Assembly: GCA_030526485.1 (NCBI GenBank)
Contig: JAUNCS010000009.1
Span: 2,466 to 38,678 of the forward strand
From: Erysipelotrichaceae bacterium
GTDB lineage: Bacteria; Bacillota_I; Bacilli_A; Erysipelotrichales; Erysipelotrichaceae
Direction of reading: 5' to 3'
DNA length: 36,213 nt
Shown piece by piece: positions 2,903-26,422 of the stretch. Made by a program: the position numbers and the translations under genes. Within the stretch, counting starts at the first letter, position 1. Each line of letters opens with the position of its first letter. A model generated the notes under the pieces. It was not told the origin of the DNA and ran no database searches. It saw nothing but the letters and a program-made list of their open reading frames with translations.

Positions 2903-3136
2903 GCATATTCAAATTCGATGATCAAGAGAGTAGTTCATCCGATTATCAAAGCGAGTCAGGACAGAGTGGAAGCCTGATGATAAAGAGTTGAATGAAACGC
3001 ACTTGTTAGAATCTTGGCTGAATAAAATAGGTCAAGACGTAGTCAGTACGTTACACGATAGAGTTGGTAGTCTTTTTGACTACAACTAGGATGGTACCGC
3101 GATAATAGTCGTTCCTGGATTGGGAACGACTTTTTT
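2903..3136 (+). promoter_or_regulatory. T-box riboswitch 1 with terminator
   Basis: The leader has T-box hallmarks: an AGTA loop-E strand at 2929-2932, a distal loop GAGTGGAAG near 2964-2972, a GAA strand (2994-2996) next to the specifier, and the antiterminator bulge core TGGTACCGCG at 3092-3101. A terminator follows: arms 3108-3115 and 3123-3130, then T6. The bulge TGGT would pair with a tRNA ending ACCA (discriminator A). The specifier is ambiguous by one base: ACG (2997-2999, Thr) or CGC (2998-3000, Arg). C-ending specifiers are commoner in T-boxes and the operon encodes a polar amino-acid importer, so I lean to Arg, weakly. Uncharged tRNA would switch the downstream operon on. Confidence 0.88.
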
Positions 3137-3203
3137 ATTTATCGAACTTGAAATTGAAGCTTCAAACAAAAAATAAAAAACTCATTTTAGAAAAAGGGGA
3201 GAT

Positions 3204-4163
3204 ATGAAAATGAAAAAATTATTAGTTGTCTTATTAAGCTTATTAATGCTTACAAATCTATGTGCTTGTGGATCTAAAACTGAAGATACAAACAATACTG
3301 GTACTGATGATGAACCAGCCTGGGTATATGAGGGTGTTGGTTATGACAAATTAATGGAAACTATGGGTAAGAGTGAAATCGACTTATCAAATGCTGATGG
3401 TACTTTAGCTAAAGTTCTTGAAAAAGGTGAACTTGTAATGGCAACCAGTCCTGACTATCCACCTGCTGAATTCGTTGATGCGCTAACTGGCGAAGTAAAG
3501 GGTTCTGATATCCTTCTAGGTCAATATATCGCTAATAGCTTAGGCGTAACTCTAAAGGTTGAATCAATGGATTTTGGTGCCGTATTAACATCTCTTGATA
3601 CTGGTAAATCTGATATCGCTATTTCTGGTTTCGGTTATAAAGAAGACAGAGCTGAAGTATATGAACTATCTATTGGCTACCAGGCTAAATCAAGCGCTGC
3701 TCATCACACAATTCTTGTAAGAGCTGAAGACGTTGATAAATATAACTCACTTGCTGATTTTGCTGGTAAGACTATTGATGCGCAAGCTAACTCTTTACAG
3801 CAGATGTATGTTGAAGATCAGTTAACTGAATCTAATCTGCAGTTAGTATCTACACTTGATATCGCACTTCTTGAACTAAGTTCTAAGAAGGTTGATGCGG
3901 TAGCTCTTGATTCTACTACAGCTAAAAACCACGCTGAAAATTCAAATGGCATGTTTGTAAGTCTATATTCTGAAAAGGGTATTGAATTTGACTTATCTCA
4001 ATATAAAGATGTAGCTGGTAACGTTGTTGCCTGCAAGAAGGGTGAAACTTCTTTAATCAATGCAGTAAATGAAATCATCACTGACATCATGGAAAAGGGC
4101 ACATATGCTGATATGTACTACGCTGCTTGTGATGCTGCTGGTGTTGTTCCAAGTGAAGAATAA
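3204..4163 (+). CDS. Amino-acid ABC transporter substrate-binding lipoprotein
   Basis: A 319-residue extracellular binding protein. The signal peptide ends in lipobox LCAC, so Cys22 or so is lipidated and anchors it outside the membrane. An extra segment of about 50 residues (to ADGTLAKVLEKG) precedes the SBP_bac_3 fold, which opens with the family motif LVMATSPDYPPAEF and includes DFGAVLTSLDTGKSDIAISG. This places it in the polar amino-acid (PAAT) family; exact substrate cannot be read from sequence. It is the first gene after T-box 1, with AAAGGGGAG as ribosome binding site; ATG 3210 is an alternative start two codons later. Permease and ATPase follow at 17 bases and by overlap. Confidence 0.9.
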   Translation: MKMKKLLVVLLSLLMLTNLCACGSKTEDTNNTGTDDEPAWVYEGVGYDKLMETMGKSEIDLSNADGTLAKVLEKGELVMATSPDYPPAEFVDALTGEVKGSDILLGQYIANSLGVTLKVESMDFGAVLTSLDTGKSDIAISGFGYKEDRAEVYELSIGYQAKSSAAHHTILVRAEDVDKYNSLADFAGKTIDAQANSLQQMYVEDQLTESNLQLVSTLDIALLELSSKKVDAVALDSTTAKNHAENSNGMFVSLYSEKGIEFDLSQYKDVAGNVVACKKGETSLINAVNEIITDIMEKGTYADMYYAACDAAGVVPSEE

Positions 4164-14196: not shown

Positions 14197-14202
14197 AAAC
14201 TC

Positions 14203-14466
14203 ATAGGCAATGAAAAGAAGTAGTAACATCTGACTTCTATTAGCGAGCTGCGAGTGGTGAAAGGCAGTTAGTAAGAAAGATGTGAACGTGTCTTGGAGCT
14301 ATTGGATAAAAACAATCGGGTTCTCCCGTTATAGAGTCCGGGTAAATCTTACCTGTTAAGGCTGGCTACAGTGATGAGTCAGTGAAATAAAGGTGGCACC
14401 ACGTTGCAATTATCAATTCAACGTCCTTTAGTCAACTAGGAAAGTTAGACGAGAGGACGTTTTTAT
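14203..14466 (+). promoter_or_regulatory. T-box riboswitch 2 with terminator
   Basis: Stem I shows AGTA at 14222-14225, then ACATCT (14226-14231) pairing perfectly with AGATGT (14278-14283), a distal loop GAGTGGTGAAA, and GAA at 14284-14286. The triplet after GAA is CGT (14287-14289, Arg); reading one base later gives GTG (Val). The antiterminator bulge is GGTGGCACC (14392-14400): TGGC would pair with tRNA ending GCCA, discriminator G. That disfavours tRNA-Val, normally A. The terminator uses arms 14420-14427 and 14454-14461 with an inner stem, then T-rich sequence. It controls the MBL hydrolase and ABC importer genes. Confidence 0.88.
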
Positions 14467-23422: not shown

Positions 23423-24709
23423 ATGAAGATGTTTAAAAAACAGATGCTTTTGTTATGTGCATTACTTTTAGCCATGACACTTGTAGGATGTTCAACAAAT
23501 AATAATACGGAGAAAGTTGAAGTAACACCTACTTATTCACTAGTACAGAATGTATACGGCTGGGGCTCAAGCTACAGTAAGGTAATTGTTCCAGTTAATT
23601 ATGCAAATGGAAAAGATTATGTAAATCCAGCTGATTATACAGTTTCAGTTGAAAGATTTGATACTGCTGGTAATGCCTTAGATAAGGGTAACCGTGTAAT
23701 CACTGCTGCTTACAGATCAAACGCGGAAGGCAAGAGTGATGATAAGGGCTCTTATGTCTGCTTAGACTTAGCAGTTACAGCTACTATGCCTTTAGCTCAG
23801 CCTTACTATACAGATCCTAATTCGTATGGAAAGACTTTAAAGGCTTGGGCTGATTGCAAGTACACAGTAACTAATAAGACTACTGGTGATACCTGGAATG
23901 AATTAAATACTGTATATCATCCAGATGAAGCAAAATTTGCAAGTGCAGTCTTTGAAGGTGATAAGACTATCCCATACGCTTACTATGAAGTGACTGATAC
24001 TACTGAAAAACATCCACTAGTTGTATGGCTACATGGAGCTGGTTCAGGTGGTACTGATATCGGTTTTGTAACAGGTGGTATGCTGGTTACTAACTTTGTA
24101 AGTGATGAAGTACAGGACATCTTTGGTGGCGCTCATATCCTGCTTCCACAGTCAGAAACAATCTGGATGGATGATGGCACAGGTAACTATGCGGTAGATG
24201 GTAACAGTGGTTATACAAGTTCAATCATCGCCTTAATCAATAAGTATATTGAGGAACATGATAATGTGGATGCTTCTAGAGTTTACTTAGGTGGCTGTTC
24301 AAATGGTGGTTATCTGACTCTTGAACTGGCTAGAAAGTATCCTGATACTTTTGCAGCTATTTTCCCAATTTGCGAAGCTATGTATGATGTATGGGTAAGC
24401 GAAGATGATATCAATGCCCTAAAAGATATTCCTACCTGGTTTGTACACTGCGTAAATGACCCGGTAGTAAATATCCAGGCTACAGCTGATGCAACTTATG
24501 CAAGATTATTGGCAGCTGGTGCAAAAGACTTACACTTTACTAGATATGAGTCAATTAATGATCCAGACTACGGCAATGCCTATGGCGGTCACTTCTCTTG
24601 GATCTACTCTTTAAAGAATCTTTGCACTACTGACTATGATGGTTCACCAGTAACTGTTAATGGCAATGCAGTAACTTTATATGAATGGTTAGCAAGCAAC
24701 ACTAAATAA
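23423..24709 (+). CDS. Secreted lipoprotein esterase, alpha/beta hydrolase
   Basis: A 428-residue protein with signal peptide and lipobox LVGC, so it is anchored outside the cell. Residues about 30-170 look like an Ig-like N-terminal domain; the hydrolase follows with oxyanion loop VVWLHGAGSGG, nucleophile Ser293 in GGCSNGGYL, Asp in CVNDPVV and His390 in GGHFSW. This is the layout of bacterial phospholipase/carboxylesterase or feruloyl-esterase-like proteins. It probably removes acyl groups from dietary or host polymers. The start is supported by ATGGAGAA upstream and the divergent LysR and cre-like site suggest induction plus catabolite repression. Confidence 0.82.
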   Translation: MKMFKKQMLLLCALLLAMTLVGCSTNNNTEKVEVTPTYSLVQNVYGWGSSYSKVIVPVNYANGKDYVNPADYTVSVERFDTAGNALDKGNRVITAAYRSNAEGKSDDKGSYVCLDLAVTATMPLAQPYYTDPNSYGKTLKAWADCKYTVTNKTTGDTWNELNTVYHPDEAKFASAVFEGDKTIPYAYYEVTDTTEKHPLVVWLHGAGSGGTDIGFVTGGMLVTNFVSDEVQDIFGGAHILLPQSETIWMDDGTGNYAVDGNSGYTSSIIALINKYIEEHDNVDASRVYLGGCSNGGYLTLELARKYPDTFAAIFPICEAMYDVWVSEDDINALKDIPTWFVHCVNDPVVNIQATADATYARLLAAGAKDLHFTRYESINDPDYGNAYGGHFSWIYSLKNLCTTDYDGSPVTVNGNAVTLYEWLASNTK

Positions 24710-24728
24710 TTTAGTCATTATAGTAGAG

Positions 24729-24756
24729 AGTCCAGATATCAAACTGGGCTTTCTAT
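24729..24756 (+). terminator. Probable terminator after the esterase gene
   Basis: Seven-base stem, arms 24729-24735 and 24744-24750 with one wobble, then a T-rich but interrupted tail. Confidence 0.5.
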
Positions 24757-24763
24757 TTATTTG

Positions 24764-24772
24764 TGTTATACT
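24764..24772 (+). promoter_or_regulatory. Extended -10 promoter of the orphan RNA
   Basis: TGTTATACT: TGn followed by TATACT at 24767-24772. No good -35, as is usual for extended -10 promoters. Transcription would start near 24779. Confidence 0.5.
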
Positions 24773-24778
24773 AAGGAT

Positions 24779-24860
24779 GTAAAGATTGGCGACCCACAGC
24801 CAAAGTCGTAGAATGGTGGAACCTTAAAGTTTAAGAGGAAGGCGACTCTTCCTCTTTTAT
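24779..24860 (+). ncRNA. Orphan short structured RNA with terminator
   Basis: About 80 bases from the predicted start to a strong terminator (arms 24833-24841 and 24848-24856, then TTTATTTTT). The 5' half can fold: TGGC (24787-24790) with GCCA (24799-24802), whose loop contains CCCAC that can pair with GTGG at 24816-24819, a possible pseudoknot; CGAC and GTCG offer an alternative. CCTTAA (24823-24828) can pair with TTAAGAGG (24831-24838), which would disrupt the terminator as an antiterminator would. No plus-strand gene follows: the next gene is convergent. I recognise no known riboswitch or sRNA family. It lacks a plausible ORF. Confidence 0.5.
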
Positions 24861-25020
24861 TTTTCTCTTTTAGCAAGAATTATAATTAAGCAAAATGCGA
24901 AATAAATGTAACAAATATCGATATCGTTATATAAAAAACAGTCAATAAGAATAAAGCCTTAAAGTTTTGTTGTAACTTTCCTTTACTGGAAGAAAAAATG
25001 AAATATTTCATGTAGAAAAT

Positions 25021-25060
25021 AAAAGAACTTTCCATTCCTTGTGGTTTGAAAAGTTCTTTT
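25021..25060. terminator. Terminator after the MATE gene (minus strand)
   Basis: Eleven-base arms at 25021-25031 and 25050-25060 with an 18-base loop. On the minus strand it follows the MATE gene. The stretch 24861-25020 between it and the orphan RNA is A/T-rich and I see nothing else in it. Confidence 0.6.
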
Positions 25061-25063
25061 TTC

Positions 25064-26422
25064 TTATTTATCGTAGTAAGCAAATTTAGTTTTATAAGCC
25101 TTGATAGCGATAGGTATAAATACCAGCAGCATTACAAATTCGGCAATAGGATAAGCAAAGAAAGTCTGTCTTAAGCCAAATCTTGATAGGAAGATAGCTA
25201 GCGGTAATAAAACGATTAACTGTCTTGAAATTGACTGAATCATTGAATGAGTACCCATGCCAAATGACTGTAGAATTGTTGTAATGACAATATTTGGGGC
25301 AACAAAGACAAAGCTTATGCCGATAGTTGAAATAACGATTTCCGCTGTTCTTAATAATTCCGCATCAGTTTCAAAGAATGAAAGTGGAATATCAGGAGTT
25401 ACTGCAAACAGTATCATACCAGCTACACAGATTGTTTCCGCTACAGCCCAGAACAGTTTAACGGCCTGCAGGTATCTCTTTCTATCGTTGGCACCATAGT
25501 TAAATGACAGGATAGGTAGAGCACCCTGGTTAAAGCCAAAGACTGGCATTAAGACAAAGGACTGCAACTTGAAGTATAGCGATAATGAGGTAATGGCGTC
25601 TTCTGAGAACTTAACCAGAATGCCATTCATTGCGGTAGTAGTAACCGAGTTAATCATATTCATAACCATTGCTGGTAGGCCAACGGCATAGATATCTTTA
25701 ACTCTTTTAGCTTTTAGGCCTTTCTTTAGATATGAAAGTCTTAGTCTTACTGTTGGTTTCTTAATTAAGACACAGGCAATTAAGAAGATTAATGATAAGA
25801 TCTGACCAACAACAGTTGCGACAGCGGCACCCTTAATGCCCATTTCAGTGAAACCGTATTGTCCAAAGATTAGAATTGGGTCAAGGATAATATTGGTGAT
25901 AGCACCAATTAACTGACCAAACATTGGGATTTTCATTTCACCCTGAGACTGGAATAGTCTTTCAAAGTAGATTGAAAACTGCTGGCCAAAGGAAATGATT
26001 AAGACAATAGATAAGTAGATATAACCATATTCGATGATTTCTGGTCTATCAGTAAATAATGCCAAGAATGGTTTAGCTACAAATAAGCCCAGGCAGACAG
26101 TAATAATTGTATGGAATCCTGTCAGGATAAAGCCATTGGCTGCTACCTTGTTGGCTTCATCGATATCGCCTTGTCCCAGTCTTCTTGCCAGCAGGGTACT
26201 TGTACCAACAGCACTGCCAAGGGCAATTGATAGGCCGATTAACTGCAAGGGATTGGCGATACCTATCGCAAACATACAGTCTTTGGAGTAGTTTGAGATA
26301 TAGATGGAATCGACAACGTTATACATGGCCTGTATCAGCATCGAGAAGACAGCTGGAAGGCCCATAGAAAATAATAGTTTTGGTATTGGCCAGGTGGCCA
26401 TTTTATTCTTTTTTTCACTCAT
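25064..26422 (-). CDS. MATE-family efflux transporter (MepA-like)
   Basis: A 452-residue, twelve-helix MATE transporter. LPAVFSMLIQAMYNVVDSIY and FNQGALPILSFNYGA are typical of the MepA branch, multidrug pumps of Firmicutes. It shows only distant similarity to the MATE protein at 9995. On the minus strand TATTAT (26435-26430) is seven bases from the ATG and there is no ribosome binding site, so a leaderless start is likely. It is divergent from pfp and converges on the orphan RNA. Substrate unknown. Confidence 0.88.
   Translation of the reverse strand: MSEKKNKMATWPIPKLLFSMGLPAVFSMLIQAMYNVVDSIYISNYSKDCMFAIGIANPLQLIGLSIALGSAVGTSTLLARRLGQGDIDEANKVAANGFILTGFHTIITVCLGLFVAKPFLALFTDRPEIIEYGYIYLSIVLIISFGQQFSIYFERLFQSQGEMKIPMFGQLIGAITNIILDPILIFGQYGFTEMGIKGAAVATVVGQILSLIFLIACVLIKKPTVRLRLSYLKKGLKAKRVKDIYAVGLPAMVMNMINSVTTTAMNGILVKFSEDAITSLSLYFKLQSFVLMPVFGFNQGALPILSFNYGANDRKRYLQAVKLFWAVAETICVAGMILFAVTPDIPLSFFETDAELLRTAEIVISTIGISFVFVAPNIVITTILQSFGMGTHSMIQSISRQLIVLLPLAIFLSRFGLRQTFFAYPIAEFVMLLVFIPIAIKAYKTKFAYYDK

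What the first reader, a model, noticed from the sequence alone, without database searches (positions are those of the whole stretch)
24764..24860. Orphan structured RNA with promoter, possible pseudoknot, antiterminator and terminator but no downstream gene
An extended -10 (TGTTATACT) starts an ~80-base transcript. Its 5' half can form a hairpin whose CCCAC loop pairs with GTGG downstream. CCTTAA can pair with TTAAGAGG and would compete with the terminator stem. That is riboswitch logic, yet only a convergent MATE gene follows. It may be a free-standing regulatory RNA, a displaced riboswitch, or an antisense regulator of the MATE 3' region by read-through.
Basis: seen in the sequence. Interest (0 to 1): 0.55.

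Follow-up and report, generated by a model that had tools for sequence, protein, structure and literature searches.

The report
Toxin-less type III antitoxin RNA
A small bacterial RNA that looked like a stray riboswitch is most likely the antidote half of a toxin-antidote defence system whose poison gene has almost wholly decayed.

Summary
A short RNA with an H-type pseudoknot and a strong terminator is encoded at about 24779-24862(+). The extended -10 is weak on its own and the proposed antiterminator is not supported. It is not a riboswitch, T-box or antisense RNA. A model built from this one sequence finds, in other genomes of the family, tandem pseudoknot arrays followed by a terminator and a ToxN toxin gene (PF13958): type III toxin-antitoxin loci. 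Both pseudoknot stems show compensatory changes across nine units. The window has one complete unit (45 nt from AAAG to AAAG). The toxin gene is gone: between terminator and MATE gene, in the right place, strand and order, lies only a C-terminal ToxN remnant (24923-25021), the best ToxN-profile match in all six frames of the window. The genome has no PF13958 match. Best reading: a decayed ToxIN locus with an intact-looking antitoxin. Five other toxin-less ToxI loci turned up (one or three units), so solitary type III antitoxins may recur, as leftovers or as antidotes against incoming ToxN; that function is untested. My searches found no report of chromosomal solitary type III antitoxins; a phage one (PhiTE pseudo-ToxI) is known.

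The parts
24722..24757 (+). Terminator of the upstream esterase gene; overlaps where a -35 would lie
24764..24772 (+). Extended -10 like TGTTATACT (weak evidence on its own)
   Evidence: 331 of 5000 shuffles as good
24779..24862 (+). Predicted antitoxin RNA, about 84 nt (start inferred from the -10, end from the terminator)
   Evidence: no expression data
24781..24829 (+). One complete ToxI-like pseudoknot unit, AAAG to AAAG
   Evidence: R2 60.4 bits (window is in the training set); profile without the window E 7.7e-7
24786..24803 (+). Stem 1 (24786-24790 with 24799-24803) and its loop
   Evidence: inner 3 pairs counted
24794..24819 (+). Stem 2 of the pseudoknot: CCAC 24794-24797 with GTGG 24816-24819
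   Evidence: 4 pairs, 36 of 36 cells paired, 2 pairs with changes on both sides
24833..24856 (+). Rho-independent terminator between antitoxin and former toxin gene
24923..25021 (+). Remnant of the ToxN C-terminus (profile positions 133-166 of 169; stop at 25013-25015)
   Evidence: 0 of 2000 shuffles reach its score

Best explanation
The feature is the antitoxin RNA of a type III (ToxIN-like) toxin-antitoxin locus whose toxin gene has been lost. It encodes one complete pseudoknot unit and the terminator that in intact loci separates antitoxin from toxin; downstream only C-terminal codons of ToxN survive. Shown: the pseudoknot with compensatory changes, homology to arrays that precede ToxN, a ToxN remnant in the right place, and no PF13958 match elsewhere in the genome. 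Inferred from the family: if transcribed, the unit folds into a ToxI-like pseudoknot that would bind and block a cognate ToxN ribonuclease, which would itself trim the unit near the flanking AAAG sites. With its own toxin gone it is most likely a relic (toxin lost first, as is safe), or it may still protect against a cognate ToxN that arrives on a mobile element.
For: R1, built from the window sequence alone, finds G240 (47.7 bits, E 7.4e-9), G055 (6.0e-8) and G056 (3.1e-6) in 315 genomes; G056's array is followed by a 190-aa ToxN (PF13958 152.9 bits, cut-off 25; PDB ToxN 4ato E 6.5e-16). R1 also matches ToxN-linked arrays L143 (1.1e-7), L176 (0.0015), L158 (0.0077) and L152 (0.016) (ToxN beside each). 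A profile of the window's sub-family run over 33 ToxN sequences (one locus held twice) put all 10 matches with E up to 1 inside ToxI arrays, 2 of the 10 being duplicates, though none was significant alone (best E 0.066). Covariation. ToxN remnant. No PF13958 match in G000, 97.8% complete. Single units beside ToxN exist (L158; L152, whose ToxN has an internal stop), and a single CptI repeat gave full antitoxicity in E. coli (PMC4627078, passages).
Against: R3, trained only on ToxN-linked units, does not match the window unit at E up to 10, and a profile of the four closest ToxN-linked units ranks it only fourth at E 1.3: the tie to ToxN goes through G240/G055 and through whole-element scores that include the terminator. 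The toxin remnant is short (26-36 aligned positions, 12.9-16.4 bits by framing). None of the 35 other genomes of the genus holds the element with a convincing score (best 27.6 bits). No expression data; the promoter is weak. For ToxI_Pa and antiQ more than one repeat was needed (PMC5086642).
Confidence: 0.87

Rival explanations
1. A selected, free-standing RNA antidote: the solitary antitoxin is kept because it neutralises cognate ToxN from incoming plasmids, phages or defence islands (anti-addiction). It has the same identity as in the best explanation but a present function.
For: Toxin-less ToxI loci in six genomes, three units kept in G240 and in G601; stem 2 intact in all five toxin-less units counted (window, three of G240, one of G055); a toxin-less copy in G081 beside a ToxN locus with nearly the same unit; PhiTE pseudo-ToxI shows that a toxin-less ToxI can suppress ToxN action (PMC3475682, passages).
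Against: The window copy has a ToxN remnant, as expected of simple decay; compensatory changes may date from when the toxin was present; no clear match in 35 other genomes of the genus; antitoxins are highly specific (PMC4627078, passage).
Confidence: 0.24
2. A displaced riboswitch or attenuator, T-box-like included: GGTGGAACC followed by a terminator resembles the T-box sequence (resemblance recalled).
For: GGTGGNACC occurs at only 2 places in the window, one of them in the T-box at 14201-14431.
Against: No Rfam match, no lower antiterminator helix can be drawn, antiterminator not competitive, homologues precede ToxN, no gene behind the terminator.
Confidence: 0.02
3. Chance: a tandem terminator with an accidental hairpin and no RNA gene.
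For: Fold z-score only -1.5; promoter no better than 331 of 5000 shuffles; element absent from the genus neighbours.
Against: Homologues with compensatory changes and a profile without the window finds it at E 7.7e-7.
Confidence: 0.03
4. Antisense regulator of the MATE 3' region by read-through.
For: The MATE gene is convergent and ends at 25064.
Against: A strong terminator lies 200 bases before the MATE stop codon; G240 has a non-convergent neighbour and G601 a different convergent gene.
Confidence: 0.02

Closest known systems
ToxIN / AbiQ-antiQ type III toxin-antitoxin systems (ToxN, PF13958)
   Same: H-type pseudoknot unit, A-rich unit boundaries, Rho-independent terminator after the unit, ToxN (remnant) downstream on the same strand; homologous arrays precede PF13958 toxins
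   Different: one unit (published systems 2.8-5.5, PMC5086642), longer loop between stem 1 and stem 2, 45-nt pitch in place of 34-36, toxin gene reduced to a C-terminal remnant
CptIN of Eubacterium rectale
   Same: 45-nt unit; a single repeat reported as fully antitoxic (PMC4627078, passages)
   Different: the CptI repeat printed in that paper's primer table does not resemble this unit to my eye; the linked toxin matches ToxN/AbiQ chains and no CptN chain in the PDB sequence search
Phage PhiTE pseudo-ToxI
   Same: ToxI-like RNA with no toxin gene beside it
   Different: phage-borne, 1.5 repeats that hold no complete unit and must expand to work (PMC3475682, passages); the window element is chromosomal, with one complete unit

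Membership tests
Type III TA antitoxin (ToxI-like RNA) | H-type pseudoknot unit conserved with compensatory changes | tested here: met
   9 units, 7 pairs, 62 of 63 cells paired
Type III TA antitoxin (ToxI-like RNA) | tandem repeats | tested here: not met
   one unit in the window; homologues have 1-3. Single units beside ToxN occur (L158, L152), so I file it as an antitoxin unit, not as a typical array
Type III TA antitoxin (ToxI-like RNA) | Rho-independent terminator directly after the repeats | tested here: met
Type III TA antitoxin (ToxI-like RNA) | homologous units beside ToxN in other genomes | tested here: met
   L119, L143, L176, L158, L152 with R1; toxin by PF13958 or ToxN profile. 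R3 did not reach the window
Type III TA antitoxin (ToxI-like RNA) | binds and inhibits a cognate ToxN and is cut into units by it | not testable with these tools
   needs expression and rescue assays
Complete type III TA system (ToxIN) | intact toxin gene downstream of the terminator | tested here: not met
   only a short C-terminal match; no PF13958 in the genome
CptIN sub-family | CptN-type toxin | tested here: inconclusive
   the linked toxin of L119 matches ToxN/AbiQ chains; no CptN profile was run
Rfam families, T-box and riboswitches included | match to a curated covariance model | tested here: not met

The most novel reading that the evidence does not exclude
Solitary type III antitoxin RNAs, one to three pseudoknot units with their own terminator but no toxin, are a recurrent, selected element in this bacterial order and its class: RNA antidotes that make cells immune to ToxN-based addiction or abortive-infection systems brought in by mobile elements.
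Probability: 0.22. Interest if true: 0.68.

Novelty: new variant of a known kind. Interest (0 to 1): 0.45.

Why it matters
Type III antitoxins are normally found by looking for the toxin gene first (PMC5086642 section 7 of its text), so toxin-less copies escape the usual surveys; the loci here also have no Rfam match. If they are kept by selection they would be RNA-only antidotes, a cellular counterpart of the phage pseudo-ToxI mimic, and would change how the spread of ToxIN defence is read. If they are relics, they show how such systems die: toxin first, antitoxin last.

Tried and rejected
Riboswitch, T-box, MATE antisense and chance readings: see the rivals. Synteny: the one close homologue of the upstream esterase (68% in G025; 67% in the named MAG contig L048, which looks like the same contig) is followed by a terminator and a different gene, with no such RNA. 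DNA searches: 101 relatives gave the window itself and one look-alike terminator, L003; phages and plasmids gave no match. The exact 16-mer of the hairpin in viral contigs gave 21 matches; the two best, L075 and L078, were read and look like coding sequence without the rest of the unit, the other 19 align over 16-19 bases only. Two gapped patterns in viral contigs gave 0. A 14-mer with up to 2 mismatches in 36 genus genomes gave scattered matches, the reversed control as many or more. R2 matches L169 and L175 lie inside reading frames and were dropped as chance. R3 match L212 looked like coding sequence and was dropped by eye; the G081:C82 pieces lie beyond the toxin's 3' side and were set aside; G083:C63 is cut by a contig end. 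A type I toxin reading of the minus-strand 65-aa ORF at 24886-25083 was considered and not pursued, since the plus strand holds the ToxN remnant. The 98-aa ORF after the G055 unit matches DUF6575 only below its cut-off (15.7 against 26.6 bits), so no new toxin type is claimed. Literature: eight searches (61 was on DUF6575 and 83 on CptIN; some had no hits); in the listings I saw no paper on chromosomal solitary type III antitoxins, but the library lacks most subscription papers.

Full report
What the sequence holds. The spacer between an esterase gene (23423-24709, plus; Pfam) and a convergent MATE-type gene (25064-26422, minus) has two plus-strand terminators, 24722-24757 and 24833-24856. Between them is TGTTATACT and then the element. 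Taken alone the region is modest: fold z-score -1.5 with 14 of 200 shuffles as good, an extended -10 matched in 331 of 5000 shuffles, no Rfam match at gathering score and only far sub-threshold ones in a relaxed search.

Homologues. BLAST against 101 genomes (own and relatives) found only the window and a look-alike terminator. A covariance model built from the window sequence alone (R1, two identical rows) and run on 315 genomes of the order gave three clear outliers: G240 (two places), G055 and G056. In all, 35 of 315 genomes had some match at E up to 0.1; the twelve weaker loci I printed showed no such unit to my eye, several being plain terminators. In G056 two units sit before a terminator and a 190-aa protein that is ToxN by Pfam (152.9 bits), AbiQ by PADLOC and ToxN by PDB sequence. 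In G125 the same unit type precedes another ToxN. R1 also reaches ToxN-linked arrays L176, L158 and L152 (run on 12 chosen loci).

Structure. Nine units were aligned (A5). For S1 (3 pairs) and S2 (4 pairs) 62 of 63 cells pair; every departure from the commonest pair but one is a change on both sides; no one-sided change occurs; 0 of 500 shuffles reach the covariation score or the percentage paired. MAFFT made the alignment without the structure. The units are related, so the shuffle count is not a probability; the slid controls, which keep relatedness, reach at most 61.9% paired and a score of 0.071 against 0.317. S2 is CCAC/GUGG in the window, UCCC/GGGA in G055, UCAC/GUGA in the second G056 and G125 units. 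One measure, the number of further pair types, was not above shuffles (3 against 3.2).

Independence checks. A DNA profile of the eight other units finds the window unit as the only significant match in 36 kb (E 7.7e-7). The profile of the four toxin-less units of G240 and G055 gives E 4.4e-9; the profile of the four ToxN-linked units of G056 and G125 does not find it (rank 4, E 1.3). A broader ToxN-linked model, R3, does not match the window unit at all. So the window unit belongs to a sub-family with a long loop before the second stem-2 strand, and its tie to ToxN rests on the R1 hits, the shared pseudoknot register and the toxin remnant below.

Toxin remnant. tblastn of ToxN proteins gave repeated short matches of ToxN C-termini to one place downstream of the terminator. 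A profile of the ToxN proteins (L152 and those outside 140-270 residues left out) ranks that place first among all six frames of the window: full-sequence E 0.0011 and 0.0013 for two overlapping pieces, the next other place 0.19. It aligns profile positions 133-166 of 169 to 24923-25021, plus strand, with a stop codon at 25013-25015. Of 2000 order-1 shuffles of 24863-25063 none reached the real score (16.4 bits; best shuffle 14.6). The match is short, but place, strand and order are those of a ToxIN locus. No such remnant was seen near the toxin-less units of G240, G055, G081, G243 or G601.

Toxin elsewhere. PF13958 matches 54 of 315 genomes of the order and not G000. Decay of ToxN is frequent: at least 13 match rows carry internal stops, one of them (G099:C197) just after a ToxI array found by R3. 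Toxins too far from PF13958 cannot be excluded.

How common are toxin-less units? R2 (window plus eight units, so biased towards the window's kind) on 315 genomes: 5 loci below E 1e-6, of which G056 and G125 are ToxN-linked and G000, G240 and G055 are not; of three weaker loci one (G112) is ToxN-linked and two (G210, G056:C100) lie in coding sequence. On 395 genomes of the class: G000 and G125 again, G446 (ToxN-linked) and G601 (three units and a terminator, then a convergent gene that I read as threonyl-tRNA synthetase; no ToxN in the 4 kb fetched). R3 (ToxN-linked units only) on 315 genomes at E up to 0.0042: 17 loci, 12 with a PF13958 match next to them, 2 toxin-less with one unit and a terminator (G081:C112:2743 and G243:C6), 1 at a contig end (G083), 1 beyond the 3' side of a ToxN (G081:C82), 1 judged coding by eye (G059). 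Toxin-less in all: G000, G240, G055, G081, G243, G601, with 1, 3, 1, 1, 1 and 3 units. Only 15-21 of up to some thousand candidates per genome were scored in the R2 and R3 searches, so these are lower bounds and not rates.

Mechanism. From the family (PMC5086642, four sections read; PMC4627078, passages): the antitoxin RNA is cut by its own toxin into pseudoknot monomers that bind head to tail and cover the active sites. In E. rectale CptIN a single repeat gave full antitoxicity; ToxI_Pa and antiQ needed more than one. The window unit is complete and flanked by AAAG on both sides at 45-nt spacing (24781 and 24826), so a full monomer could be released. That it is transcribed, folded and active is inference. 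What it does now is either nothing (relic, my first choice) or protection from a cognate ToxN.

Literature. The searches named in Tried and rejected listed no report of solitary chromosomal type III antitoxins. PhiTE pseudo-ToxI (PMC3475682, passages) is the nearest known toxin-less ToxI; orphan antitoxins in general are in print (PMC10305079, passage). The review PMC5086642 does not use the word orphan.

Noticed in passing
window 2909-3119 and 14201-14431, plus strand: Two T-box leaders (Rfam RF00230, 123.1 and 97.6 bits); the genome has 17 T-box matches at E up to 0.001, 11 over the cut-off.
   Followed up: partly
L133 (G055:C41:57000-64000): The toxin-less G055 unit sits among other TA-like genes (read by eye): a RelE/HigB-like and XRE pair on the minus strand at 800-1439 and a HicB-like protein at 3066-3539, with a 98-aa ORF weakly like DUF6575 (below cut-off) between.
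   Followed up: partly
L210 (G081:C112:1500-5000): A toxin-less single ToxI unit with terminator lies about 25 kb from an intact three-unit ToxI-ToxN locus with nearly the same unit on the same contig.
   Followed up: partly
PF13958 matches of the order: At least 13 ToxN match rows carry internal stops, so decayed ToxN genes are frequent in this order.
   Followed up: no
window 24886-25083, minus strand: A 65-aa ORF with a hydrophobic C-terminal half overlaps the ToxN remnant on the other strand; probably chance.
   Followed up: no
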